Of a stretch of DNA of 36,263 nt, positions 1 through 36,250 are shown in pieces. The position numbers and the translations under genes are program-made. Below the pieces are notes generated by a model. The model worked only from the letters and a program-made list of their open reading frames with translations, did not search any database and was not told where the DNA came from. How positions within the stretch are numbered: position 1 is the stretch's first letter; the number at the start of each line of letters is the position of its first letter. Source of the stretch: an uncultured Caryophanales bacterium (GTDB taxonomy: Bacteria; Bacillota_I; Bacilli_A; RF39; UBA660); assembly GCA_949948745.1 (NCBI GenBank), contig CATLHA010000012.1:1-36263 (forward strand). The letters run 5' to 3'.

Positions 1-59
1 CCTAAAGTTTTTGCTCTATTAAATTATACTATAAATGCAAAATAATTCATATACTCCCA

Positions 60-88
60 TTGAAATTTAATAACAATTCATATATAAT
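60..88 (+). promoter_or_regulatory. Sigma-A type promoter at left end
   Basis: A -35 box TTGAAA (60-65) and a -10 box TATAAT (83-88) are separated by exactly 17 bases. Transcription would start near 95 and run rightward into a structured leader and a terminator hairpin before the first gene. Confidence 0.6.
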
Positions 89-94
89 ATTTAT

Positions 95-203
95 AGAAAG
101 AGAACAAAGTTCGTAACTTGTATGTGATTCGCTCCAAAAGGTAAAATCGTCGCACCAAGTGACGTTAATGATTAAATCAATCTGAAATATGATTGATTTT
201 TTT
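95..203 (+). ncRNA. Putative leader or small RNA ending in an intrinsic terminator
   Basis: From the predicted start near 95 the transcript contains a 6-bp hairpin (CGTCGC 148-153 with GTGACG 159-164, loop ACCAA) and then a 9-bp hairpin (AAATCAATC 174-182 with GATTGATTT 191-199) running into a T tract at 197-203. It would be a ~110-nt RNA, or an attenuator for the 90-residue protein gene that begins at 244. No convincing peptide-coding ORF lies within it. I do not recognise it as a known riboswitch class. Confidence 0.4.
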
Positions 204-243
204 GTCGACTAAATTAGTCTAGTCAAGAAAGGTGTGATGTGTT

Positions 244-516
244 ATGATTAAAATCGAAAAAAAGAAAATCAATATGAGTGATGAACTCAAAGACAAAATT
301 AAATGGTCTTGCAAATTTAATAACCTATCCTATGAAATCATAGAAGGTTACTTACGAATTGTGGAACACACAAATTTAGCATACGTGGAGCCACACAAAG
401 TTATTATTGATAATAAGTTATACTTATTCTTCAATGAACAGAAACATTTTTACATAGGGAATCTAAAAAAGAAAATCCCATTGTCTGAATTATCAGAGTA
501 CATAGCAAGGCATTAA
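244..516 (+). CDS. Small hypothetical protein (90 aa)
   Basis: Encodes a 90-residue, lysine-rich protein with no signal peptide, membrane segment or motif that I recognise. It is preceded by an AAGAAAGG ribosome binding site about 11 bases before the ATG and by the promoter, leader and terminator unit at 60-203. It is followed by inverted repeats (538-573) and a terminator (578-606) before the recombinase gene. Its position just inside the left end, upstream of the recombinase, suggests an element-borne accessory or control protein, but the sequence shows no helix-turn-helix, so this is inference only. Confidence 0.6.
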   Translation: MIKIEKKKINMSDELKDKIKWSCKFNNLSYEIIEGYLRIVEHTNLAYVEPHKVIIDNKLYLFFNEQKHFYIGNLKKKIPLSELSEYIARH

Positions 517-526
517 TTGGTGAGTT

Positions 527-2734
<2,208 letters not shown>

Positions 2735-2737
2735 AAA

Positions 2738-3091
2738 ATGGAATTAAATTATATAAAAGTTGGATATTATTTATTACCAAATCTAACTATTAAAAATCAA
2801 AATTATGAAAAAATTAACAAGTATGGATATTTGAGATTAAAGTATTTAAAAGAACACAATAAAGGTTTATACACGACTCTTCTTATGCAAGATGAACTAA
2901 CTAATCATCTTGTTTCAGTCAGTAATGAATGCGAAGAAAGATTAAAAACTTTGATGGATAATTATAGAAAAAGTGATGATAAAATATCTGAAAAAAATAA
3001 AGAAATCAATCAAATTGAATGGGTTAAATTAATGAATAATTATAAAGATTGTGCAGAAGAAATTATCTTGAAAGAAATGATATATGTATGA
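2738..3091 (+). CDS. tnpV: TnpV transposon protein
   Basis: A 117-residue protein with the features of the TnpV family of Tn4451-like elements: an N-terminal segment MELNYIKVGYYLLPNL, a central GYLRLKYLKEH block, a helical region and the characteristic end EWVKLMN...AEEIILKEMIYV. The role of TnpV is not well established; in Tn4451 it is not the recombinase. It sits directly behind the frameshifted small gene and ahead of the relaxase, with a purine-rich GAAAGAGAGAG ribosome binding site. It ends with TGA, which shows that TGA is a stop here. Length is normal for the family. Confidence 0.85.
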   Translation: MELNYIKVGYYLLPNLTIKNQNYEKINKYGYLRLKYLKEHNKGLYTTLLMQDELTNHLVSVSNECEERLKTLMDNYRKSDDKISEKNKEINQIEWVKLMNNYKDCAEEIILKEMIYV

Positions 3092-3150
3092 TGTTGTTTA
3101 TAAGCGAGCAACGTGGCTTTACTCCCACCACTAAAAAAGAAAGGCTAAAT
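3092..3150 (+). promoter_or_regulatory. Candidate origin of transfer / relaxase leader
   Basis: The stretch between tnpV and the relaxase contains AACGTGGCTTTACTCCCACC (3110-3129), then the relaxase ribosome binding site. A conserved block of this sort commonly precedes relaxase genes in Firmicutes mobilizable elements, and relaxases often nick just upstream of their own gene. The TTTACTCCCA part resembles the TATACTCCCA repeats elsewhere in the element. No nick site can be fixed from sequence alone. Confidence 0.35.
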
Positions 3151-3151
3151 C

Positions 3152-4462
3152 TTGACTATGGCTACAACATCAATTTGGTCTATTAAGAATAATTTAAAGC
3201 AATCTATTAATTATATTATTAATCCAGAAAAGACTACCAATAAAGATTATGGTAAAGTTGATTATGACTTTTTAGAAGGTAAAAAAGATTATGATTTCAA
3301 AAAAGAAAAATTATGTTATGTAAGTTGTTTAAATTGCTCCGAAGATAATCCCTTTGATGATATAAAAGATACCAAAGACTATTATCGTAAAAATGATGGT
3401 GTTCTTGCTTATCATGGATATCAGTCATTTAAGGAGGGAGAAGTCACTCCAGATATTGCTCACGAGATAGGAGTTAAGTTTGTTAGTGAAATGTTTAAAG
3501 ATTATGAAGTGGTTGTTGCTACTCATCAAAATACTAATCATATACACAATCACTTTATAATCAACTCTGTTTCGTTTAAGACTGGTAAAAAGTATAATAA
3601 CAATCGTACTAATCTAGCCAAGTTAAGAAATATATCTGATTCACTATGCGATGAATATGGGCTTTCTGTTTTAGATGAAGATGTTGGTTACAAAAGTACC
3701 TATAATCATAAAGTAATAAACAATGATTATTATAAAACTCTTAAAGATGATTTAGATAATGTTATTAGTTATTCAGTCACTCTAAAACAAGTTATGGATA
3801 GAATGAAATTACTAGGTTATAAAATTTATTATCGTAATGAGATTATAACGATTTATAGAGATGATTGTGATAAAGTTAGAATTGAAAAAGTATTTGGTAG
3901 TGATTATTCAAAAAATAGTATATTTGAACGATTATATCACTCAAGACAAACTGTTTTTAAACCTATGACTCATAAATCTATATTTCAAGAATATTTATCG
4001 ACAACTAATAATCAGCATAAAGGTATTTATGGATTATATGTGTACTATTGTTATCTCTTAGGAGTATTCCCAAAGAAACATCCCAAACAATATCTGTCTT
4101 ACTCTATAAGGCAAGAGATAAAAAAACTAGATTCATATTCAAAACAAACAGAATTTATGGTAGATAATAAAATTGAAACTATAGAAGATTTAGAAGCATT
4201 TTCTAAAAATAACTATGAAAAATATCAAAATCTTATGGGAAAAAGAGAAAATCTTTGGAAACGATATCATAGAGCAAAAACTGAAGATAAAAAATCAGAA
4301 ATACTTGCTGAAATAAATGATATTCAACCTAAAATTAAAGAACTTCGCAAATTAGATAATTACTGCAAAGAAATTAAAAAGCGTTCTGAATCCATACAAG
4401 ACAATCTTAATAATTTTGATAAAGATATACCAAAAGAAAAATGCAACTCTAGATATTTATAA
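3152..4462 (+). CDS. Relaxase / mobilization protein (MOBP-like)
   Basis: Relaxase expected to nick the element at its origin of transfer and pilot the strand during mobilization. The N-terminal third carries the relaxase fold, with an INYIINPEKT segment, LAYHGYQSF followed by the helix EVTPDIAHEIG, and the metal-binding triad in THQNTNHIHNHFIINSVSF (residues ~128-146). The rest is helical and charged. At 436 residues it is typical for small Firmicutes mobilization proteins. Start is either TTG 3152 (7 bases after AAGG) or ATG 3158 (13 bases); the TTG has the better spacing. It is the last gene of the recombinase-tnpV-relaxase series and ends in a strong bidirectional hairpin. It plays the role of TnpZ in Tn4451. 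Confidence 0.88.
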   Translation: MTMATTSIWSIKNNLKQSINYIINPEKTTNKDYGKVDYDFLEGKKDYDFKKEKLCYVSCLNCSEDNPFDDIKDTKDYYRKNDGVLAYHGYQSFKEGEVTPDIAHEIGVKFVSEMFKDYEVVVATHQNTNHIHNHFIINSVSFKTGKKYNNNRTNLAKLRNISDSLCDEYGLSVLDEDVGYKSTYNHKVINNDYYKTLKDDLDNVISYSVTLKQVMDRMKLLGYKIYYRNEIITIYRDDCDKVRIEKVFGSDYSKNSIFERLYHSRQTVFKPMTHKSIFQEYLSTTNNQHKGIYGLYVYYCYLLGVFPKKHPKQYLSYSIRQEIKKLDSYSKQTEFMVDNKIETIEDLEAFSKNNYEKYQNLMGKRENLWKRYHRAKTEDKKSEILAEINDIQPKIKELRKLDNYCKEIKKRSESIQDNLNNFDKDIPKEKCNSRYL

Positions 4463-4478
4463 CCTAGAGTTGCATTTC
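4441..4478. terminator. Bidirectional terminator between relaxase and specificity subunit
   Basis: ATGCAACTCTAG (4441-4452) pairs perfectly with CTAGAGTTGCAT (4464-4475), with A/T-rich sequence on both sides. The relaxase stop lies in the loop and the convergent specificity gene ends at 4477, so one hairpin serves both transcripts. Confidence 0.8.
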
Positions 4479-5448
4479 ATATTTTATCAGAATATGGAAT
4501 ACTTTTTATGTAACACTCCATATAATCCCAATCTGGTTCACCATTTTTAATTGGTAATTTTATCAATGTATTACGTATATTTTTGGTATTAAATGCTCTT
4601 CCGTAAGAGTATTTAAATGTTTCCTTATTTAATATTGTAGTAATAAATAAGGCATTATATTTATTCAATTTATTAGATTTTAAAATTGTAATATTATTCC
4701 CAGTCACAAAAGCTTTTGATTGATAAAATGCTTTGGCACTCTCTCCTCCAATTATAATTACATTCCCTTGATTTAGAGTATATTCTGATGCATCAACTTT
4801 TTTTTCAACTCCATTATTTAATTTAGTTCTAGTAATATATGGTATGTCTCCAAAATCATTTAAATCATTGCAATTTATGTTTTCTGATCTATTAATTTCA
4901 AAAAAATCTGAAAGTTTTATCCAATCCCAATTAAAAGTATTTACAGAGGGAACCATTGCTTTGGTTTTTGTTTTTATATGATTAATATTTAACTCTCTTA
5001 TATATTTATCCATATATTCATAATCTGGTCTCCCATTTTTTGAAGGCAACAAAATAAAAGTTTCCTTCATTTTTTCTAATGTCCATTTTCTACCATAACT
5101 AAATTTAAATTTATTTTTCTTTATCACAGTACAAAGAAATAATCCGATATTTTCATTCAATTCATAGTCTTTTAGTTCAAGAATATTTATATCATCAGTT
5201 GCCCAAAATGGTTTTGATTGATAAAATGCTTCTCCAACACTACCATTATAATTAACTGTAATACAATTTCCTAAATGTTGAGCAGGAGCATCAATAAACT
5301 CCCTTACTGCATTATTTTCTGATATAGCACCAAGATAATTCAATTTACCAGGTACCATATCATTTTTTGTTAATCTTTTTCCTTTAGTAAATGAAAATAT
5401 ATCATCCATTTTATATGGCTTCCAAGAATTTATTTTTAAATTATTCAT
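4477..5448 (-). CDS. Restriction-modification specificity subunit (HsdS/BcgIB-like)
   Basis: DNA-recognition subunit of the neighbouring fused nuclease-methylase. The ~323-residue protein is an internal duplication. Each half begins with a short WKPYKMDDIF / WIKLSDFFEI segment, has an AFYQSKPF / AFYQSKAF block and an FSYGR / YSYGR turn, and ends with PDYEYM / PDWDYM before a helix. This is the two-target-recognition-domain layout of type I S subunits and of BcgI B (about 340 aa), so a bipartite target is expected; the target cannot be read from sequence. ATG 5448 is preferred over 5460 because GGTGA precedes it at proper spacing. The start overlaps the end of the methylase gene by 8 bases, so the two are translationally coupled. 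Confidence 0.85.
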   Translation of the reverse strand: MNNLKINSWKPYKMDDIFSFTKGKRLTKNDMVPGKLNYLGAISENNAVREFIDAPAQHLGNCITVNYNGSVGEAFYQSKPFWATDDINILELKDYELNENIGLFLCTVIKKNKFKFSYGRKWTLEKMKETFILLPSKNGRPDYEYMDKYIRELNINHIKTKTKAMVPSVNTFNWDWIKLSDFFEINRSENINCNDLNDFGDIPYITRTKLNNGVEKKVDASEYTLNQGNVIIIGGESAKAFYQSKAFVTGNNITILKSNKLNKYNALFITTILNKETFKYSYGRAFNTKNIRNTLIKLPIKNGEPDWDYMECYIKSIPYSDKI

Positions 5449-7303
5449 TAATATCACCATTTTTTACTAAATATGCAACATAATCTCTAACAGTTTGCTC
5501 AAAGTCTTCTGGAGTTAATGTAGAATAATCCGTTTCCATATATGCTTCACAAAGCCATTCATCATCTTTTGATACACAATGTCTACTTGATAATCCGGGT
5601 TTTATATCTTTATTTTTATATAATGTAATCCATTCTTTTAAAATGTCATTCCATTTATTATTTGCATCAATTCTTCCCAATTTTTTTCTTTTTACGAAAC
5701 CATCATCTTTGTAATATCCAAAATATGTTTCTTCCGAAGAATCATGGGGAGTATGTGCTTCCCAAACCATAACGCAAGTATTTGTTCCTGTAGGATAAAA
5801 AATATCATCAGGCATGCTAAACACAGCTTTTAATTTATTATTTTTCATTAGTCTTTCTCTAACATCTTTAAACTTTGTACCGATAGCACAACTCATTGGC
5901 ACAACTGCTACTCCTGTACCTCCAGGGACTAAAATGTCTAACATATTTTCAACAAACTCTAATTCACATTTATCATTTTGAGAATATGGAGGATTAATTA
6001 AACCTATATTAATATTTTTCTCTCTAAGCTCATCTTTAATTTTTTTATTAAAACAATCCCCATGATAAATATTAGATTTCCCATCTCTTCTTATAATCAT
6101 ATTTGCTATAGCTAATGTAAATAGTTCTACATCAAGTTCAACACCATAAAGTCCCTCTTTTTTAATTTTCAAAATTTCTTCTTGATTAGCACCTTTGAAC
6201 ATTTTTGTCATTGCACTTACTAAAAACGAACCACTTCCACAACATATATCAACAACTTTACTATTCTTATTTACTCCAGATAATTCACACATAAACTCAG
6301 TTAAATGTTGTGGTGTAAGAACTATACCTAAACCTTTTCCATCGCCACCACTATATTTAACAAATTCATGATAAAAAACTCCTAATGCATCTAAGCTGGC
6401 ATCTGCATAATTCATCATAGGTTTTATTTTCATTTCTAACTGCTCAATATACCAAGTAATAGAATTTCTATGTCCTAATGGGATTGACTTTAATTTTTCA
6501 TTGCTTCCCATAATCTTGAAGGCACTTTTAATATTATCAATTTTATCTTTTTTGATATCGCTATTATCAAGTGTAGTCTCTATTGCATGTTCTAAATTTC
6601 TCATAACGCTATCAAAAGTTGTATATCGTGAATACTCTTCACTAAATGTTTTATCTTCTAATGCTATTAAAATACCTGCAATAAAAATAGGTTTATGCTT
6701 TTCTGAAACTTTTATTTCTCTTAAAGTGTCGTGCATTTCCAAAGCAGTGTTTCTAATATCTTCCAAAGAATATTCTTTTTGCAATTTTTCACCATTGACT
6801 AACTTCAAATAATTTTCTGGTTCTAGAATAATATCTCTTGCTTTTTTTAACTCAAAATAATCATCTTGATTTTCTGGCCAATAAAAAGTTGATACTTTCA
6901 TAGTTTCTTTTTTTGTTCCACTAACCGCTATTGCAATTACATTATATTCGGTTTTTAAATATTTGGCATAATATAAAACTCCATCAACTGCAAACTTTAA
7001 TGGCTTACAAAGATTTTCAGAAGAATGCTGATTTACATTTTTCTTGCATTCTACAACAATGATTGTGCTTAAATCCTTATTAAAGGTAATAACAAATTCA
7101 GGTTTTGCCTTACCTTTTGCATCATCAAATAATTCATGAACATTACTTTCATTAGGTTTTCCACCAGCATATTTTAATAGTCTTTCTATTTTATCAATAT
7201 CTGATACATCACCTTGAGGATATACATATCCAAAGGAATTTTTGCCTATATCACATTTCATCTCTTTTAAAGTTAAATTTTCGGTAAACTGTTCAATAGC
7301 CAT
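5441..7303 (-). CDS. Fused restriction endonuclease / N6-adenine methyltransferase (BcgI A-like)
   Basis: A single polypeptide that should both cleave and methylate DNA. The N-terminal ~150 residues contain a PD-(D/E)xK type nuclease site, KPEFVITF followed by VVECKKN. The middle is helical. The methyltransferase domain begins near residue 310 (HEFVKYSGG, LGIVLTPQHLTEFM) with the AdoMet motif VDICCGSGSFL and the catalytic motif INPPYSQ. At 620 residues with a separate specificity subunit it resembles BcgI A (type IIB), not HsdM of a type I system, and there is no separate HsdR helicase nearby. The start has a consensus AGGAGGT. It is divergent from the DUF4297-like gene across about 160 bases that contain TATAAT boxes for both directions. 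Confidence 0.82.
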   Translation of the reverse strand: MAIEQFTENLTLKEMKCDIGKNSFGYVYPQGDVSDIDKIERLLKYAGGKPNESNVHELFDDAKGKAKPEFVITFNKDLSTIIVVECKKNVNQHSSENLCKPLKFAVDGVLYYAKYLKTEYNVIAIAVSGTKKETMKVSTFYWPENQDDYFELKKARDIILEPENYLKLVNGEKLQKEYSLEDIRNTALEMHDTLREIKVSEKHKPIFIAGILIALEDKTFSEEYSRYTTFDSVMRNLEHAIETTLDNSDIKKDKIDNIKSAFKIMGSNEKLKSIPLGHRNSITWYIEQLEMKIKPMMNYADASLDALGVFYHEFVKYSGGDGKGLGIVLTPQHLTEFMCELSGVNKNSKVVDICCGSGSFLVSAMTKMFKGANQEEILKIKKEGLYGVELDVELFTLAIANMIIRRDGKSNIYHGDCFNKKIKDELREKNINIGLINPPYSQNDKCELEFVENMLDILVPGGTGVAVVPMSCAIGTKFKDVRERLMKNNKLKAVFSMPDDIFYPTGTNTCVMVWEAHTPHDSSEETYFGYYKDDGFVKRKKLGRIDANNKWNDILKEWITLYKNKDIKPGLSSRHCVSKDDEWLCEAYMETDYSTLTPEDFEQTVRDYVAYLVKNGDINE

Positions 7304-7428
7304 TTCAACACCTCCTACATTATATATATAAATTATATCATTTAATTACTATTTTTTAAATACATTTTACTATATATTTTCTAAATTTTACCGATTGTAA
7401 ATGACCTAAAGAAAGCTAAATTTTATGA

Positions 7429-7434
7429 TATAAT
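7429..7434 (+). promoter_or_regulatory. Extended -10 box for nuclease-HerA operon
   Basis: TGATATAAT (7426-7434) is a TGn-extended -10 element; no strong -35 is visible. Transcription from about 7441 would leave no leader for an ATG at 7446, but about 25 bases for the ATG at 7467 with its GGAG, supporting the latter start. Confidence 0.5.
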
Positions 7435-7466
7435 ATTTTCAAGAAATGATGTGGAGTGATATTTTT

Positions 7467-8654
7467 ATGAAAACTAGACAAGCAAATGACATTATAAAGG
7501 GTTATTTTTACCAGTTTAATAAAACAATTTATGAAATCCTATTACAAGATAATAACACAACAAAAATAAAAATAGAAAGTATTGAAGATTTTGATATTGA
7601 AACTGATGATACATATACTGCAATTCAATGTAAATATTATTCTACGCAAACATATAATCACTCGGTTATAAAAAAAGCAATAATATGTATGTTTAAACAT
7701 TTTTCAAATAACAAATCTAGTAATTTAAATTATAAAATATATGCAAATTTTAAAGACGGTCAATCAAAACTGCATAATCCTATAGAATTAGATTTTTTTA
7801 AAGATAATTTTCTAACTTACAAAGAAGAAGGCATAATTCACAAAGTTTATGAGGAACTCAACTTAAATGACACCGAAATAAAAATGTTTATGGAAAAAAT
7901 AGACATCGATATAAATGCCACCGATTATGATTCTTTAGAACTTGACATAAAAGAATTATTAAAAAAAGAATTAAATATTGCAGATGATTTAATTGACTTG
8001 TATTTTATGAAAGCTGGAAGTATTATAAAGAATATTGCTATTAAAGAAAACGAAGATGAAAGGATGATTACTAAACAACGATTCATTGACTTGCTAATGG
8101 ATATTAATGTTATATTGGACAAATGGTATATAACAAAAATTGGAAAGGAAAAATATTATAGTTTAATTAGAAAAAAATATTTTTCAAAACACAATATATC
8201 ACCATATGAAAGATTTTTTATCATTGAATGTCCTGAAAATATTCAGATATCAACACTAAAGAAAATAACAAATGCAATTTCTGATAAATGGTCAAAACTA
8301 TCCAAGAGAACACCACAACCATTCTGTCCATATATTGTTTTTGTTAATTTAAGCGAAAATAATTTATTACTATTAAAACAGAGTTTATATAATGATGATT
8401 TTAAATTTATTGATGGTTATGATTTTAAAGGTGCTAAATTTTCTGCTAAAAGCATAATTCAAGAAGCCAATTATAAAAATAATATTAAAATAAAAATATT
8501 CAATTTGGAAGAAATAGAAAATGTATTAGATATTTTACAGAACACAAAAGAAATTTACCAATTTTATATAAATAACAAAGTTTATAAAAATAAAAAGAAC
8601 TATCAAATAGATATTAAAATAGATGATTTGGAAGACGTTCTAAACATTATTTAA
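7467..8654 (+). CDS. DUF4297/Cap4-like nuclease, HerA partner
   Basis: The first ~100 residues fit the N-terminal nuclease of the DUF4297/Cap4 family: GYFYQFNKTIYEILL, then SIEDFDIETDDTYTAIQCKY, in which an acidic pair and a QxK take the place of the PD-(D/E)xK active site. The remaining ~290 residues are helical, then mixed, with no family that I recognise, and may bind HerA or sense the trigger. About 395 residues. The stop codon is part of the ribosome binding site of the HerA gene (TAAGGAGG), so the pair is tightly coupled. DUF4297-HerA pairs are established anti-phage systems in which the nuclease and a HerA hexamer form a complex. The family call rests on motif reading only; function by context is stronger than by sequence. 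Start at 7467 is favoured by GGAG at 7453-7456. Confidence 0.6.
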   Translation: MKTRQANDIIKGYFYQFNKTIYEILLQDNNTTKIKIESIEDFDIETDDTYTAIQCKYYSTQTYNHSVIKKAIICMFKHFSNNKSSNLNYKIYANFKDGQSKLHNPIELDFFKDNFLTYKEEGIIHKVYEELNLNDTEIKMFMEKIDIDINATDYDSLELDIKELLKKELNIADDLIDLYFMKAGSIIKNIAIKENEDERMITKQRFIDLLMDINVILDKWYITKIGKEKYYSLIRKKYFSKHNISPYERFFIIECPENIQISTLKKITNAISDKWSKLSKRTPQPFCPYIVFVNLSENNLLLLKQSLYNDDFKFIDGYDFKGAKFSAKSIIQEANYKNNIKIKIFNLEEIENVLDILQNTKEIYQFYINNKVYKNKKNYQIDIKIDDLEDVLNII

Positions 8655-8668
8655 GGAGGAAAACTTAC

Positions 8669-10312
8669 ATGGAAGAAAATAAAATAATCGCTGAAGTTAT
8701 TTCAGTATTACCTAACAAAATTAAAATATCTGTAGATGATATAAATGATTTTAAAATAGCAGAGGAAAAACTAAAAATTGGTTCATATATTGAAGTTAGT
8801 GACAATGATAATTGTAAATTGATGGCTATCATAGAAAATTTTTCTATAGAAATTAAAGGAAATGAATCAAGTGAAAGAAGATATATTTTAGAAGCAAGTC
8901 CACTGGGAATAATAAGTAATGGTAGTTTTGAACGAGGTGGTGATAATATTTCTATTCCACCTAAAGATGTAAAACCTGCCAAAAAAGAGGATATAATAAG
9001 CATATTTTCTTCATCAACAAATAGCGATGATAAAATGTTTACATTTTCAACACTTTCTTCTGACCATTCAATTCCTATACCAGTAGATGGAAACAAATTT
9101 TTTAATAGACATATTGCAATTGTTGGATCGACTGGATCTGGTAAATCAAATTCTGTCGCTAAAATATTGCAAAATGCAATATCATCTAAAAATAGCACTT
9201 ACGACGGATTAAATAATTCCCATATAGTTATATTCGATATACATTCAGAATATAAGGCTGCTTTCCCCAATGCAAATTATATTGATATAGATAATTTAGT
9301 TTTACCATACTGGTTATTAAATAGCGATGAATTACAAGAATTATTTATTGATACAGAAGCCAATGATCACAATCAAAGGAATGTATTTAAAGAATCTGTT
9401 GTCAATAGCAAAAAATTGCATTTTGAGGGAAATGAAGAACAAAAAAATAGGATTCATTTTGATTCACCACTATTTTTTGAAATCAATGAAATTTTAAAAG
9501 ATGTTAAAGAAAAAAATGAGGAAATGGTACAAGGCGCTAGAGATATGAAAGCAGGTCCTTTAAATGGTAAATTAACAAATTTTGTTAGTAGATTAGAAAA
9601 TAAAATAAACGATAAAAGATTAGACTTTTTACTAGGAGAAAAATCTAAAAATATAACTTTCGAAGACACATTAAAAAACTTAATTGGATATAATAAAGAA
9701 AATTCCAATGTTACCATAATTGATTTAAGTGGTGTTCCTTTTGATGTTTTGAATATTACAGTATCACTTATTTCAAGAATATTATTCGAGTATGGATATT
9801 ATTATAAAAAAATAAGATTTTCTCAAAATCCTAATGAATTTGTAAATAATGATATCCCTCTATTACTTGTTTATGAAGAAGCACACAAATATGTACCAAA
9901 TAGTGATTTATCTAAATATCGTGCATCAAAGGAATCGATTGAACGAATTGCTAAAGAAGGTCGTAAGTATGGAATTACACTCCTTCTTGCTAGTCAAAGA
10001 CCTTCTGAAATCTCCGAAACAATATTCTCACAATGTAATAACTTTATAGCAATGAGATTAACAAATCCTAATGATCAAAACTATGTAAAAAGATTGCTAC
10101 CAGATACTTTTGGAGAACTTATAAATAAAATGCCATCTCTTAAAGTTGGAGAAGCATTACTGATAGGAGATGCGGCCGTTATTCCTTCAATTGTACAAAT
10201 AGATGAATGTGAAGATAAACCATCCTCAAATGACATCCCATATTATGATTTATGGAAAGAAGAATGGAAACAACTAAACATAGAGGCAATAATATCTGAA
10301 TGGATAAAATAA
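8669..10312 (+). CDS. herA: HerA-family ATPase/DNA translocase (defence)
   Basis: A hexameric FtsK/HerA-type ATPase. The N-terminal ~100 residues form a beta-rich barrel (HAS-like). Walker A is VGSTGSGKS (residues ~152-160), followed by IVIFDIHSEYKAAF. Walker B is LLLVYEEAHKYVP (~394-406). The arginine-finger/sensor region is LLLASQRPSEISETIFSQC, then NFIAMRLTNPNDQNYVK. The 547-residue length is normal for bacterial HerA found in defence pairs. It lies 14 bases behind the DUF4297-like gene with a full AGGAGG site. In known DUF4297-HerA systems the ATPase assembles with the nuclease and controls DNA degradation during infection; whether that holds here is inference. NurA, the archaeal partner, is absent. 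Confidence 0.88.
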   Translation: MEENKIIAEVISVLPNKIKISVDDINDFKIAEEKLKIGSYIEVSDNDNCKLMAIIENFSIEIKGNESSERRYILEASPLGIISNGSFERGGDNISIPPKDVKPAKKEDIISIFSSSTNSDDKMFTFSTLSSDHSIPIPVDGNKFFNRHIAIVGSTGSGKSNSVAKILQNAISSKNSTYDGLNNSHIVIFDIHSEYKAAFPNANYIDIDNLVLPYWLLNSDELQELFIDTEANDHNQRNVFKESVVNSKKLHFEGNEEQKNRIHFDSPLFFEINEILKDVKEKNEEMVQGARDMKAGPLNGKLTNFVSRLENKINDKRLDFLLGEKSKNITFEDTLKNLIGYNKENSNVTIIDLSGVPFDVLNITVSLISRILFEYGYYYKKIRFSQNPNEFVNNDIPLLLVYEEAHKYVPNSDLSKYRASKESIERIAKEGRKYGITLLLASQRPSEISETIFSQCNNFIAMRLTNPNDQNYVKRLLPDTFGELINKMPSLKVGEALLIGDAAVIPSIVQIDECEDKPSSNDIPYYDLWKEEWKQLNIEAIISEWIK

Positions 10313-10324
10313 ATTTAAAGTGTA

Positions 10325-10352
10325 TTGAAAAAATCATAATATCTGCTATAAT
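10325..10352 (+). promoter_or_regulatory. Outward-facing promoter near right end of element
   Basis: TTGAAA (10325-10330) and TATAAT (10347-10352) are separated by 16 bases, with a TG extension (TGCTATAAT). It lies 13 bases after the HerA stop and points out of the element, but only a ~100-base leader ending in a terminator follows. Confidence 0.5.
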
Positions 10353-10358
10353 TTATTT

Positions 10359-10461
10359 ATCAGTTGATTTAATCAATCTTGGGAGTATAATTTTTCGCAT
10401 ACGTGTATCGTTATCGCTCCATATTGATATTAAGAACTGTTGAGAAATGGTTCTTTTTTTT
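10359..10461 (+). ncRNA. Putative short terminated RNA at right end
   Basis: Transcription from the promoter at 10325-10352 would begin near 10359 and stop at a hairpin, AAGAAC (10432-10437) with GTTCTT (10450-10455) and eight Ts (10454-10461). The RNA contains the TTGATTTAATCAA dyad (10365-10377), TGGGAGTATA and a TTCG...GTAT...TCGCTCCA segment (10394-10421) resembling one in the left-end leader (110-136). It may instead be an attachment-site region with incidental promoter-like boxes. Confidence 0.3.
10432..10461 (+). terminator. Intrinsic terminator after HerA / right junction
   Basis: A 6-bp stem AAGAAC/GTTCTT with a 12-base loop is followed by an eight-T tract. It would end both the short right-end transcript and any read-through from the HerA operon. 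Confidence 0.5.
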
Positions 10462-10505
10462 ACATTCCCGTATTCAACTTGTTGGGGGTCCTAATTTCTA
10501 TTATG

Positions 10506-10546
10506 AAAAAAAGATGGTATTTAGATTATTTCTATTGCCATCTTTT
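10506..10546 (-). terminator. Terminator of MiaB-like pseudogene
   Basis: On the minus strand AAAAGATGG pairs with CCATCTTTT (plus-strand 10538-10546 and 10509-10517) and runs into seven Ts (10506-10512). It overlaps the stop of the pseudogene. Confidence 0.7.
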
Positions 10547-11667
10547 AATTATATATATACCCATGTCCTACAATTCTAGTGTTTACATTTCTCTTTTGCA
10601 ACACTTTAGAATAGATTCTTGTGTGTTCTTGTATTTTCTCAGGACTTAACTGTTCATAACAGCTAGAATCTACATATTCTGAATTTATATATCGACAAAT
10701 AGAAACTTCATAAGCCTCTAGTTGTTTTAGTACTTCTAATGTTCTTTTTACATCTTCTATTGTTTCTGTTGGAAAACCAGAAATAATATTCAAGAATAAA
10801 TCTTTATCATTTATTTTTCTGATTCCTTGAACAAATTCTATGATTTCTTGGCTAGTAAAACCTTTTCTAATTAACTCTAATAACCTATCACTGCCAGACT
10901 CTAAAGAGCCACATAGTTCTACTACTTTGGTACTGTTCGCTATGACATTTTGGAAGTCATTTTTTATTGCATCTTTAAATGAAAAACCAACCAATATTAC
11001 TCTTTTAATATTTTCTTTTTGTTCTAGATAAGTGATGATTTCTGGTAGCATATATTTTTTATAAATGTCTAATCCATATTGGCAGATATTTGTCCCTTTT
11101 AATAGAAGCTCTGAACAATTTTCTTCGTCTAAAGAATCAATTGCTTCTTTTACTTCATTTAGTTCAACACTTTTTAAGGGATATTCTTGAAAAGTAAGCT
11201 TACAAAAAGAACAGTTATTTAGACATCCATTTGAAATATAGATAGAAGATGACTTCTTTGAATCTCTAGTTATCATTCAAAAACTATTGATGTTTACATC
11301 ATGAAACATCTCTTCTGAAAGTAATTTTAATAGTAAGTTCGGTTGATTTTGTGGAATAATAAAATCCACTTTTTTCGTCAACCATTCTTCTACTTTCGCT
11401 AAAAAAGGATCACTTTTTAAATGTTCTAGTAATGCACCCTGTTAAATATACTTTAGCTTCTTTCTTCTTTTCTTTTAAAATATTAGAAATCTTTTCTAAA
11501 GTATAGTTTATATTATAATTCGTACAACAGCAGGTTTCCGCAATGACAATCGCATCAGCTTCTGAAACGTTCGGTGTTATTTCAAAAGAATTTAGTAATT
11601 TATCATAAATAATATACTGTTGATAATTTAATCCACATGTATTTCTTGGTCCTATAAAAACTTTCAT
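10545..11667 (-). pseudogene. MiaB/MtaB-like radical SAM methylthiotransferase, broken
   Basis: Remnant of a tRNA or protein methylthiotransferase. The N-terminal domain has its three cluster cysteines (NTCGLN, ETCCCTN, TGCITR). The radical SAM domain retains CLNNCSFCK (CxxxCxxC). Two lesions separate them. A one-base insertion in the A-run near 11415-11419 stops the first frame at 11410, while the shifted frame continues as SDPFLAKVEEWLTKK. That frame then meets an in-frame TGA at 11277-11279, right before ITRDSKKSSSIYISNGC. If repaired it would be about 375 residues. No C-terminal TRAM domain follows, so it is also short compared with MiaB. TGA as Trp is unlikely because TGA ends other genes here. 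It lies immediately right of the mobile element. Confidence 0.8.
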
Positions 11668-11682
11668 TTTTTTCTCCTTTTA

Positions 11683-12546
11683 TTACCAGTATTCAGCTCT
11701 AAATATTACTTCATTTGTTTGTTCATTATATGCAGATAATAAGAATTTTCCATGATTACAGTATCCTGAATCGTCACATTTTCCATCTACCAAATAGATA
11801 ATAAAATCATCTTCATTCTTATAATTTGCTGGTGTTAAAGAAAATGCTCCAACTAATAATCCTTCTTTTTCCTTATACTCTTTTTTATGTCCAATCCAAA
11901 TTGCCTTTGATTTATACTTTTTGTCAAATTTCTCCATTGTCATATTCCGATCAACATAATATAACATATAGTTTGTTCCTGCTTGTAATATTCCTGGTGC
12001 ATAGTAAAACTTAATATTTTCTACATTTTCAGGAATCTTTTTTGGAAATACTTTTGTAAGCTCTGTTCCATGAATTTGGTGTTTATAATACTTTAAATCA
12101 GTTACTGGATTTTCTGCCTCTAAAAATCCAATAATAAAGATTACTCCTATATAATAATAGAATAATAGAAGGACAAGTATTCCTGTAATAGCCTTACAAA
12201 TAAATCGTATTTGTTTTTTCTTTCCTAAGTAATAGCACAATAATGTAAGAATTAAGAAAACAATAAATGGAATATAACTAGCTAATAGTACTATGAAGAA
12301 ATCTTTCCCAAATGGCATACCGATTGAGGTATATGCTAGAAGACAACCAAGAATAAATGTGATTATACACATTATAAAAGGAAATCTTATTCTTCTAAAT
12401 CTGTTGATATTCTGTTCATCGTATATAATGCTTTGGTTTTCTAAACGACTTTTATTTTTTTCTTTTACTTGATCTATGATTATTATCAAAACAACAAAAA
12501 TTGTTAATATGGCAACTATAAACAATTCAATCACTTCTTTCACCAC
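11683..12546 (-). CDS. Membrane protein of unknown function
   Basis: 287 residues with four predicted membrane helices in the first half (around 5-25, 54-78, 82-107 and 117-141), then an extracytoplasmic or cytoplasmic domain of ~145 residues with mixed beta-type sequence ending EVIFRAEYW. No catalytic motif is recognised. A charged linker rich in Lys, Asn and Gln separates helix 1 from helix 2. The gene starts 15 bases... before the MiaB-like remnant on the same strand (its stop at 11683, remnant start at 11667), so the two may once have shared a transcript. It is divergent from the 12658 gene. Confidence 0.7.
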   Translation of the reverse strand: MVKEVIELFIVAILTIFVVLIIIIDQVKEKNKSRLENQSIIYDEQNINRFRRIRFPFIMCIITFILGCLLAYTSIGMPFGKDFFIVLLASYIPFIVFLILTLLCYYLGKKKQIRFICKAITGILVLLLFYYYIGVIFIIGFLEAENPVTDLKYYKHQIHGTELTKVFPKKIPENVENIKFYYAPGILQAGTNYMLYYVDRNMTMEKFDKKYKSKAIWIGHKKEYKEKEGLLVGAFSLTPANYKNEDDFIIYLVDGKCDDSGYCNHGKFLLSAYNEQTNEVIFRAEYW

Positions 12547-12626
12547 AAATTGATTTGCCTGTATTATAACATAAGTGTCTTTTATCTTATTTAAAATTTT
12601 TATCGATGTACAGTTTATTTACATGT

Positions 12627-12638
12627 ATGTTATAATTA
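12627..12638 (+). promoter_or_regulatory. Extended -10 box upstream of 12658 gene
   Basis: TGTTATAAT lies about 25 bases before the ATG at 12658, fitting a TGn-extended -10; the -35 region is weak. An AGGTGA ribosome binding site follows. Confidence 0.4.
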
Positions 12639-12657
12639 ACGGTACAGGTGACTTTCT

Positions 12658-13776
12658 ATGGAAAAAATAGTATTTAAAGAGTTAATTGAACTATTTTTAC
12701 ACACTTCCATTTATGAAATTAAAAAGGAGTGTGAAGTACCAAATATAAATTTTAAATTTGGAGAAGATGGTTTTCTACTTTTTCAAAATATCATGGAAAA
12801 TCCTTTTGTATTAAAAGATGCTTGGACTCCAAATATAGGACAAAAAGATATTGACTTTCTGATTTTTCATAGTAATGATGATACATTGACTGTTCAGATA
12901 GAAGATAGTATTCAATTTTTTCAATATTTAACAGATATTACAAATTCCTTGATTAAATTAAGAAATGAATATCATGACCATTCTTCTTCTAGAAATTTAG
13001 CGATGCAAATTCTAAGACGTATTTGGTTACGTATGGGAATTGAAGATTTTCAAAATGTAAATTATTTTTTAGGAAAGCAATTATCATTTTTAATAAATAG
13101 AACATTAGATACTTTAGATATAGAATTAGTTCATGAACTCCAAGAGTATAAGATTTTAAAAAGAACAGAAGTAAATCCAACTTGGGATGAATCTACTCGA
13201 AGTATGATTTTTACAATCAAGAATAATGAGTCTTATTATGAGCTTCCCCATATTTTATATGATATAGATGATAATGATATTTGCTATATTTATGCGGTTC
13301 AAAGTTCCAAGCATGAAAAAGATAAAAAGATAGAAAGAGAACTATATAAAATAAATAAAGGTATTGAAGATACTAATGTACATCCAAGTAAGGTTTTATC
13401 CCTTTTCTTCTTTATTCGAGAATTAGAAAAGAAAAATATTACTAAAATTAGAATTCCTAGTATACAAATCTTATCTTATCATTATCATGAATTGCTAAGT
13501 AAACAAGCTGAATTAGATTTTCAAAAAGCAAAAATCAATATTACTCGATTTCCGAATAGTAGTTATGAAAAAAGGAAATATGATATACAGAAATCTTGGC
13601 ATGATAGAGTATATAACAAAGAAGATAAAATTAGTAGTTTAAAAACTGAAGAACTTATTCATCTAGCTTATCGAATATTAGAACACTATCCAGATATGCA
13701 AATAGTAAATGATATCAATTTGCAAGGCGATTATTTAGATATTCGAATCAAATCTTTTTCATCTAAAAAGCACTAA
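12658..13776 (+). CDS. Hypothetical protein (372 aa)
   Basis: Not recognised. A soluble, mixed alpha/beta protein without signal peptide or membrane helices. Visible features are a His-rich patch (EYHDHSSSRN, ~105), a beta-rich middle (residues ~170-220, with NNESYYELPHILYDIDDND), a Lys/Glu-rich helical stretch (~225-250) and a second helical half with SYHYHELLSKQ. The start is supported by AGGTGA 9 bases upstream and by an extended -10 box. It stands alone, divergent from the membrane protein at 11683 and convergent with the histidine phosphatase, sharing the terminator at 13776. Intact length and good expression signals argue for a real gene. Confidence 0.75.
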   Translation: MEKIVFKELIELFLHTSIYEIKKECEVPNINFKFGEDGFLLFQNIMENPFVLKDAWTPNIGQKDIDFLIFHSNDDTLTVQIEDSIQFFQYLTDITNSLIKLRNEYHDHSSSRNLAMQILRRIWLRMGIEDFQNVNYFLGKQLSFLINRTLDTLDIELVHELQEYKILKRTEVNPTWDESTRSMIFTIKNNESYYELPHILYDIDDNDICYIYAVQSSKHEKDKKIERELYKINKGIEDTNVHPSKVLSLFFFIRELEKKNITKIRIPSIQILSYHYHELLSKQAELDFQKAKINITRFPNSSYEKRKYDIQKSWHDRVYNKEDKISSLKTEELIHLAYRILEHYPDMQIVNDINLQGDYLDIRIKSFSSKKH

Positions 13777-35311: not shown

Positions 35312-36250
35312 TTAATTTAGAAAATTCATAACTAAATCAATTATAACTTCTTTTTCTCTTGGATTAGATTCCGCAATAAATAATGTTAATGCAGCCAAAG
35401 TATTATTATCAATAACTTGTTTATTATCTTTATACAAAATATTATAAAAATTTAAAAAATAGATAAATAAGGTTGCTGCAATTCTTTTATTTCCATCTAT
35501 AAAAACATGATTTTTAACAATCATATATAGAAAGTTAGAAGCTTTTTCTTCTATACTTTGATATACATCATTGTTATCAAAAGTTTGATAAACATCTCCT
35601 ATTATCGCTTCTAATCCTTTATTTCTTTCAACAGCAAATATATCACTTTCTTCATTAAATCTTAATTTATTAATTATATCTAGGCATTCCTCATACTTAA
35701 TTTTCTCATCACTATTCTTCCCTTTAGGTTTGCACAAAGACTTATGGTCATAGTCATCTAACAAATCCAAAGCTTTAGAATAACTTCCAATTACTTTTAA
35801 TATTTCTTTAGCATCCGTATCTGTTAATTCATCATCCATTCTATTAGCAATATCTATTAGGCTAACCGTTTTTTCTAGATATTCTAGTCTTTTTTGATTA
35901 ACAACATAACCTTTAATCATATAATCTTTTAAAATTTTATTTGCCCACTTACGGAATATAATACCATTTTGTGATTTGACCCTATAGCCAACACTAATTA
36001 TCATATCCAGATTGTAAAATTGAGTATTATATTTTTTACCATCATTTGCAGTATGCTCAAAAAACGAGCATACTTGTTTTTCTTCCAATTCAACATCTTT
36101 ATATATGTTCTGAATATGCCTAGTTATAGTTTTTCTATCTTTTCCAAATAACTGAGCCATTTGTGCTTGTGTAAGCCAAACAGTCTCTTCTTTCATATTT
36201 ACTTCTAATTTTACTTTTTGATTTTCAAAAATAATTATTTCATTTTTCAT
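35312..36250 (-). CDS. RhuM-like protein fused to a Fic/Doc domain
   Basis: A 312-residue fusion. Residues 1-~110 are the RhuM/virulence-protein domain (VWLTQAQMAQLFGKDRKTIT, FFEHTANDGKKYNTQFYNLD followed by MIISVGYRVKSQNG), a DNA-binding-like module. The C-terminal part (~190-312) is a Doc/Fic-type domain with the catalytic HVFIDGNKRIAA, i.e. H-x-F-x-D-G-N-K-R. This matches Doc-type kinases or AMP/phosphotransferases more than classic Fic, which has GNGR. Likely targets are translation factors or similar, by analogy. No antitoxin gene is visible on its 3' side; the 5' side is beyond the window edge. The start follows AGGGGGTTAAT. The gene is complete. Confidence 0.88.
   Translation of the reverse strand: MKNEIIIFENQKVKLEVNMKEETVWLTQAQMAQLFGKDRKTITRHIQNIYKDVELEEKQVCSFFEHTANDGKKYNTQFYNLDMIISVGYRVKSQNGIIFRKWANKILKDYMIKGYVVNQKRLEYLEKTVSLIDIANRMDDELTDTDAKEILKVIGSYSKALDLLDDYDHKSLCKPKGKNSDEKIKYEECLDIINKLRFNEESDIFAVERNKGLEAIIGDVYQTFDNNDVYQSIEEKASNFLYMIVKNHVFIDGNKRIAATLFIYFLNFYNILYKDNKQVIDNNTLAALTLFIAESNPREKEVIIDLVMNFLN

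What the first reader, a model, noticed from the sequence alone, without database searches (positions are those of the whole stretch)
7467..8654. Divergent nuclease partner of HerA with a large unassigned C-terminal part
Only the first ~100 residues match the DUF4297/Cap4 pattern (IEDFDI, then AIQCKY). The other ~290 residues resemble nothing I know, so this may be a new subtype of the nuclease-HerA defence family with its own sensor or effector.
Basis: partly seen in the sequence, partly recalled or inferred. Interest (0 to 1): 0.55.

Follow-up and report, generated by a model that had tools for sequence, protein, structure and literature searches.

The report
Known DUF4297-HerA anti-phage nuclease pair
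The gene is an ordinary member of an already solved bacterial anti-phage system in which a DNA-cutting enzyme sits on a ring-shaped DNA motor, and its supposedly unknown back half is the known part that builds the complex.

Summary
The 395-residue protein matches the curated equivalog NF042945 (DUF4297 family anti-phage-associated protein; 413.9 bits, cut-off 300; profile 1-400 of 400) and PADLOC's DUF4297 model (1-404 of 404). It aligns along its length with the E. coli DUF4297 of PDB 8xav (query 4-394, E 8.6e-73; 141 of 389 identical). The predicted model matches the E. coli crystal structure 8zgi (Z 34.9, 385 residues, rmsd 5.5 A), and its C-terminal domain matches 8xaw (Z 23.7, 167 residues, rmsd 1.7 A). 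Catalytic D40/Q53/K55 are conserved as D41/Q54/K56. The next gene is the matching HerA motor (877.3 bits, cut-off 850), ATPase residues intact. The C-terminal domain is the one that stacks the nuclease in two layers and docks it on HerA (PMC11291478). One difference: an insertion in HerA about 29 residues shorter than in E. coli. The pair sits in a probable mobilizable element beside an exchangeable restriction-modification module.

The parts
7467..8654 (+). DUF4297 family nuclease gene (395 aa plus stop)
   Evidence: NF042945 413.9 bits over cut-off 300, 1-400/400; PADLOC DUF4297 1-404/404; 8xav_G 4-394 E 8.6e-73
7453..7456 (+). GGAG, likely ribosome-binding site for the start at 7467
   Evidence: sequence
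7467..8141 (+). N-terminal DUF4297/Cap4-like PD-(D/E)xK nuclease domain (residues 1-225)
   Evidence: 82 of 221 identical to E. coli DUF4297; structural matches to 8dgc Avs3 Z 10.0 and Cap4 Z 7.0-7.5
7587..7589 (+). catalytic D41 (E. coli D40)
   Evidence: invariant in 12 of 12 aligned sequences, the window's included
7626..7628 (+). catalytic Q54 (E. coli Q53)
   Evidence: invariant in 12 of 12
7632..7634 (+). catalytic K56 (E. coli K55)
   Evidence: invariant in 12 of 12
8142..8651 (+). C-terminal assembly and HerA-docking domain (residues 226-395), starting at G226 = E. coli boundary G224
   Evidence: 59 of 168 identical; Z 23.7, rmsd 1.7 A, 167 aligned to 8xaw_Q; role taken from PMC11291478
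8655..8659 (+). GGAGG, likely ribosome-binding site of herA, in the 14-nt spacer
8669..10312 (+). HerA hexameric ATPase / DNA motor gene (547 aa)
   Evidence: NF042944 877.3 bits over cut-off 850; 8xau_A E 2.4e-220; 339 of 532 identical
9143..9148 (+). K159-S160 (E. coli K157-S158), nucleotide-binding motif
9518..9556 (+). shortened insertion subdomain of HerA (residues 284-296; 13 residues against 42 in E. coli HerA)
9875..9880 (+). E403-E404 (E. coli E426-E427), Mg/ATP site
9962..9967 (+). trans-acting R432-K433 (E. coli R455-K456, arginine finger)

Best explanation
This is a two-gene DUF4297-HerA abortive-infection anti-phage system of the E. coli 8XAV type. HerA would form a hexameric double-stranded-DNA motor. 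Twelve DUF4297 molecules would stack on it in two layers of six through their C-terminal domains (inter-layer tail-to-tail dimers, lower layer docked on the HerA HAS barrels). Assembly would pair the N-terminal PD-(D/E)xK domains of the upper layer and so switch on unspecific dsDNA cleavage, while HerA hydrolyses ATP and pumps DNA towards the nucleases; host and phage DNA are destroyed and the infected cell dies before phage spreads. Shown here: family membership of both proteins, conserved catalytic residues, domain architecture, gene order, purifying selection. Inferred from the solved homologue: assembly, stoichiometry, activation and death. The phage cue that triggers it was unknown in PMC11291478 and is not addressed here.
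For: NF042945 and NF042944, both equivalog models, above curated cut-offs. PADLOC DUF4297 full length and HerA. Best PDB match of both proteins is the same solved complex: 8xav for the nuclease (248.6 bits, against 68.5 for 9c1m and 63.6 for 8ziq), 8xau/8xav for HerA (736 bits). D41/Q54/K56 = D40/Q53/K55, and HerA K159, S160, E403, E404, R432, K433 all conserved; An et al. report that nuclease-site (D40A/Q53A/K55A) or ATPase-site (HerA K157A) mutation abolishes defence (PMC11291478, Results). Predicted model (pLDDT 82) matches crystal structure 8zgi_A over 385 residues, Z 34.9, rmsd 5.5 A. HerA directly follows DUF4297 in all three near relatives, and a gene annotated HerA, DUF87 or ATP-binding directly follows in 14 of the 15 plasmid hits opened, of 19 found.
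Against: No assay of these proteins was available; activity is inferred. The active-site loop (residues 41-53) of the model has pLDDT under 50, so the active site rests on sequence. The whole-chain rmsd of 5.5 A reflects a different hinge between domains or an imperfect model. HerA lacks most of the insertion subdomain that closes the hexamer base in E. coli and carries DNA contacts R284/K287, so the gating detail cannot be transferred. The HerA model was too poor to use (pLDDT 60.9). In one relative (L023) a 438-aa gene stands between DUF4297 and HerA, and in one plasmid no HerA is listed next to it.
Confidence: 0.95

Rival explanations
1. A new subtype of nuclease-HerA defence whose C-terminal part is an unrelated sensor or effector.
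For: Pfam has no significant match to the C-terminal part, and identity of the C-terminal part to the eight more distant relatives is low (20-42%).
Against: The C-terminal part is covered by NF042945 and PADLOC models to the last residue and superposes on the solved E. coli C-terminal domain at rmsd 1.7 A over 167 residues, Z 23.7.
Confidence: 0.02
2. The system is a variant in which HerA, having a minimal insertion subdomain, is not self-blocked in the same way, so that the off-state is held by another means.
For: 13 residues between anchor columns in window, L004 and L005 HerA against 24-62 in the other 8 of 11 aligned HerA and 42 in E. coli HerA. PMC11291478 assigns the insertion to closing the pore base, to DNA contacts and to the clash that keeps HerA alone inactive.
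Against: Insertion length is variable in the family (13-62), the pair is otherwise typical, the E. coli residues there lie at the edge of a local alignment, and no structure or assay of a short-insert HerA was available.
Confidence: 0.12
3. A degraded or inactive remnant on a mobile element.
For: The neighbouring MtaB-like radical SAM gene (10545-11667) appears as two separate ORFs.
Against: Both frames intact, catalytic residues kept, dN/dS 0.16 for DUF4297 and 0.06 for HerA.
Confidence: 0.03

Closest known systems
E. coli DUF4297-HerA (WP_016239654.1 / WP_016239655.1; PDB 8XAU-8XAY, 8ZGI)
   Same: Full-length homology of both proteins, same gene order, same catalytic and ATPase residues, same two-domain nuclease with glycine boundary.
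   Different: 36% (DUF4297) and 64% (HerA) identity; HerA insertion about 29 residues shorter, without aligned R284/K287 equivalents.
DUF4297-HerA of PDB 9C1M/9C5X and 8ZIQ/8ZIR/8ZIT
   Same: Same two proteins and fold (Z 19.0 for 9c1m_A and 22.6 for 8ziq_A).
   Different: More distant by sequence (68.5 and 63.6 bits against 248.6 for the 8XAV type).
Avs3 and CBASS Cap4 nuclease domains (8DGC, 7YIB)
   Same: N-terminal nuclease domain fold only (Z 10.0 and 7.0; likeness also stated in PMC11291478).
   Different: The second domain is a different sensor (STAND in Avs, recalled; SAVED in Cap4), and they act without HerA (recalled).
SIR2-HerA (8SUW, 8WOC)
   Same: HerA partner; the C-terminal domain of DUF4297 gives a middling match to the SIR2 chains (Z 7.7 and 7.5).
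   Different: A SIR2 protein instead of a PD-(D/E)xK nuclease; the Z is in the range that a common arrangement alone can give (note).

Membership tests
DUF4297-HerA anti-phage system | Nuclease gene matches the curated DUF4297 anti-phage equivalog over its whole length above cut-off | tested here: met
   NF042945 413.9 bits, cut-off 300, 1-400/400; the family is found in 0 of 14 control genomes
DUF4297-HerA anti-phage system | Adjacent HerA of the matching anti-phage type | tested here: met
   NF042944 877.3 bits, cut-off 850; HerA-like matches occur in 6 of 14 control genomes but above the cut-off in 0; 14-nt spacer with GGAGG
DUF4297-HerA anti-phage system | PD-(D/E)xK catalytic D, Q, K of the nuclease domain | tested here: met
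   D41, Q54, K56 align with D40, Q53, K55; invariant in 12 of 12 aligned sequences, the window's included
DUF4297-HerA anti-phage system | C-terminal assembly domain fold | tested here: met
   Z 23.7 to 8xaw_Q, rmsd 1.7 A, 167 aligned
DUF4297-HerA anti-phage system | HerA ATP-site lysine, paired glutamates and trans-acting Arg-Lys | tested here: met
   K159, S160, E403, E404, R432, K433
E. coli 8XAV form in detail (not a defining feature of the family) | HerA insertion subdomain as in 8XAU, with R284 and K287 | tested here: not met
   13 residues against 42; R284 aligns with M286, K287 has no aligned counterpart. Its length varies from 13 to 62 in 11 aligned HerA, so it does not define the family.
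DUF4297-HerA anti-phage system | 12:6 complex, dsDNA cleavage, abortive infection | not testable with these tools
   Needs protein and phage assays
CBASS Cap4 / Avs | SAVED or STAND sensor domain in the same protein | tested here: inconclusive
   No such family listed for this protein in Pfam, PADLOC or NCBIfam at E up to 10; the C-terminal part instead matches DUF4297

The most novel reading that the evidence does not exclude
A lineage of DUF4297-HerA (window and uncultured Bacilli MAGs) whose HerA has nearly lost the insertion subdomain that, in E. coli, closes the motor's base and helps keep HerA alone inactive, so that these systems hold their off-state and load DNA in a different way.
Probability: 0.12. 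Interest if true: 0.35.

Novelty: new member of a known kind. Interest (0 to 1): 0.1.

Why it matters
As a finding it mostly removes a false lead: the "unassigned" region is the known assembly domain, and Pfam alone gives the wrong impression because it has no matching model. As a natural variant it offers a HerA with a minimal insertion, useful for testing what that insertion does in the off-state of this defence complex.

Tried and rejected
A new-subtype reading was tested with Pfam, PADLOC, NCBIfam, PDB sequences, a structure prediction and two fold comparisons and rejected. A prediction of HerA with 7 sequences was too poor to interpret (pLDDT 60.9), so the consequence of the short insertion was not modelled. 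An attachment-site search between the left end of the contig (1-600) and the right end of the conserved block (10361-10460) gave only 8-9-base shared words (TCGCTCCA at 129 and 10414, among six listed), suggestive at most. The direct repeats in 1-12700 (at least 60 families, 20 shown) looked like A+T-rich chance matches. Promoter-like sites near the pair were not clearly more frequent than in shuffles (33 against a mean of 27.9, sd 6.3), and no terminator-like site was found. tblastn of the protein against phage records found nothing, although four IMG/VR contigs carry relatives. In the PDB sequence search with DUF4297 a weak hit to YpmB (2gu3, E 0.57) was ignored as chance, and so were the sub-threshold Pfam matches DUF1376 and Mrr_cat_2. 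SIR2-fold matches of the C-terminal domain (Z 7.2-7.7) were not taken as evidence of SIR2 descent. Four of the 19 plasmid hits (H14, H15, H16, H18) were not opened.

Full report
Observation. The ORF ending at 8654 on the + strand is real. The start at 7467 is preferred over 7446: a GGAG lies 10 nt upstream and the three close homologues begin M-K-x-R like it. The protein has 395 residues. HerA follows on the same strand at 8669-10312, after a 14-nt spacer with GGAGG. Against three related MAG loci the DUF4297 protein is 74-77% identical with dN/dS about 0.16, the C-terminal part included (0.18-0.22); HerA has dN/dS about 0.06 against the two loci tested. So the gene is under purifying selection along its length.

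What it is. The specialised libraries are unambiguous: NF042945 DUF4297_antiphage, an equivalog model, 413.9 bits against a cut-off of 300, covering profile positions 1-400 of 400 and residues 4-395; PADLOC DUF4297, positions 1-404 of 404. Among solved structures the best sequence match is the DUF4297 of PDB 8xav (248.6 bits, residues 4-394, E 8.6e-73), followed at distance by 9c1m (68.5 bits) and 8ziq (63.6 bits). Residue mapping gives 141 of 389 identical, 82 of 221 in the N-terminal domain and 59 of 168 in the C-terminal domain. The partner matches NF042944 HerA_antiphage_2 at 877.3 bits (cut-off 850) and 8xau_A at E 2.4e-220, 339 of 532 identical. As controls, NF042945 was found in 0 of 14 well-known genomes; NF042944 rang in 6 of 14 but above its cut-off in none.

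Structure. A ColabFold model from 9 sequences has mean pLDDT 82.0 and pTM 0.77; residues 41-53, in the active site, are poorly predicted. Foldseek's first hit is the crystal structure of E. coli DUF4297 (8zgi_A, E 1.2e-32), and ranks 2-19 are all chains of DUF4297-HerA entries. VIA-align gives Z 34.9, rmsd 5.5 A over 385 residues to 8zgi_A, and for the C-terminal domain Z 23.7, rmsd 1.7 A over 167 residues to 8xaw_Q. The N-terminal domain also matches Avs3 (Z 10.0), Lamassu LmuA (6.6-9.8), Hachiman (7.8) and Cap4 (7.0-7.5), as expected for a Cap4-type nuclease. The C-terminal domain is therefore the known one, not a new sensor.

Catalytic and interface features. An et al. 2024 (PMC11291478; I read abstract, introduction, results, discussion, the protein-expression methods and data availability) report that nuclease-site (D40A/Q53A/K55A) and ATPase-site (HerA K157A) mutants lose defence. 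The counterparts D41, Q54, K56 and K159 are present, as are S160, E403, E404, R432 and K433. D41, Q54 and K56 are invariant in 12 of 12 aligned sequences, the window's included; all 12 match NF042945 at E up to 0.001. The boundary glycine G224 corresponds to G226. A review (PMC12198126, first of two parts read) summarises this and further studies of the same system.

Difference from the solved complex. Between two anchor positions (E284 and G296 of the window's HerA) there are 13 residues in the window, L004 and L005, and 24, 24, 26, 43, 49, 50, 62 and 62 in the other 8 of 11 aligned HerA; E. coli HerA has 42 (282-323). The E. coli insertion closes the pore base, carries DNA contacts R284 and K287, and contributes to the clash that keeps HerA alone inactive. 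R284 aligns with M286 and K287 has no aligned counterpart, though this is at the edge of a local alignment. It is a real but modest difference within a variable region. L006 and a HerA in a genome of the same class (L023) are also short there, by eye. The HerA model was too poor to use.

Distribution. NF042945 is rare in relatives: 2 of 195 genomes searched, the window's own included. In 392 genomes drawn from the phylum, 3 matched at E up to 0.001, of which 1, the window's own, was above the cut-off; the other two are weak partial matches. In genome contigs a single-protein scan, which finds close relatives only, gave 4 loci. Plasmids: 19 records with relatives, of which I opened 15; a gene annotated HerA, DUF87 or ATP-binding follows directly in 14, and in the other (Rhizobium rhizogenes pColt5.8a) the next listed genes are of an IS66 element, with the caution that this gene table is incomplete. 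Seven of these HerA were aligned; the rest are named from annotation, size and position. Phage records: none. IMG/VR: 4 contigs, with HerA downstream aligned in 3 and an unaligned HerA-like ORF, judged by eye, in the fourth.

Context. Upstream lie a large serine recombinase (593-2506), TnpV (2738-3091) and a MobA/VirD2-type relaxase (3152-4462), then on the minus strand a type II specificity subunit and a type IIG-like restriction-methyltransferase (4477-7303). In L005 and L006 a like relaxase (81-82% identical DNA) and the same DUF4297-HerA (84%) flank a different pair of methyltransferase-like genes, so the module between them has been exchanged. Homology to L005 and L006 ends at about 10421, which may be the right end of the element.

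Verdict. Function is inferred from a homologue that was characterised by experiment and is not shown here; the trigger was unknown in the cited paper. Literature searches were limited to the open-access library.

Noticed in passing
window 4477-7303 (minus strand): Compact restriction-modification pair: 620-aa type IIG restriction enzyme-methyltransferase plus 327-aa specificity subunit, overlapping by 20 nt; the layout recalls BcgI-type systems (recalled, not tested).
   Followed up: partly
L005 1226-5831 and L006 1226-5843, against window 4477-7303: Between a like relaxase and the same DUF4297-HerA, two MAG loci (isolates named Lapin) carry a different module of two methyltransferase-like genes (545 aa with 987 or 991 aa), so the slot looks like an exchangeable defence cassette. 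L004 carries a similar module.
   Followed up: partly
window about 129-10421: Probable integrative mobilizable element: serine recombinase, TnpV, relaxase, two defence modules; the right end is suggested by the end of homology at about 10421 and a shared TCGCTCCA (129 and 10414), which is only 8 bases.
   Followed up: partly
window 10545-11667 (minus strand): An MtaB-like radical SAM methylthiotransferase appears as two separate ORFs, the UPF0004 end and the radical SAM end.
   Followed up: no
L023 146-4796 (minus strand): In a genome of the same class, DUF4297 and HerA are separated by a 438-aa gene without a significant Pfam match, and a 126-aa SieB-like protein (PF14163, E 1.1e-10) lies upstream: a possible extended version of the system.
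   Followed up: partly
window 35312-36250 (minus strand): RhuM/Fic fusion protein matching PADLOC candidate defence family PDC-S23 (E 5.6e-122).
   Followed up: no
own genome G000: C6 8585-12084 and C37 6405-8012: Further HerA-like sequences below the anti-phage cut-off, the C37 one with two in-frame stops; their partners were not examined.
   Followed up: no
window 12658-13776: 372-aa protein with no match in Pfam, PADLOC or NCBIfam at E up to 10.
   Followed up: no
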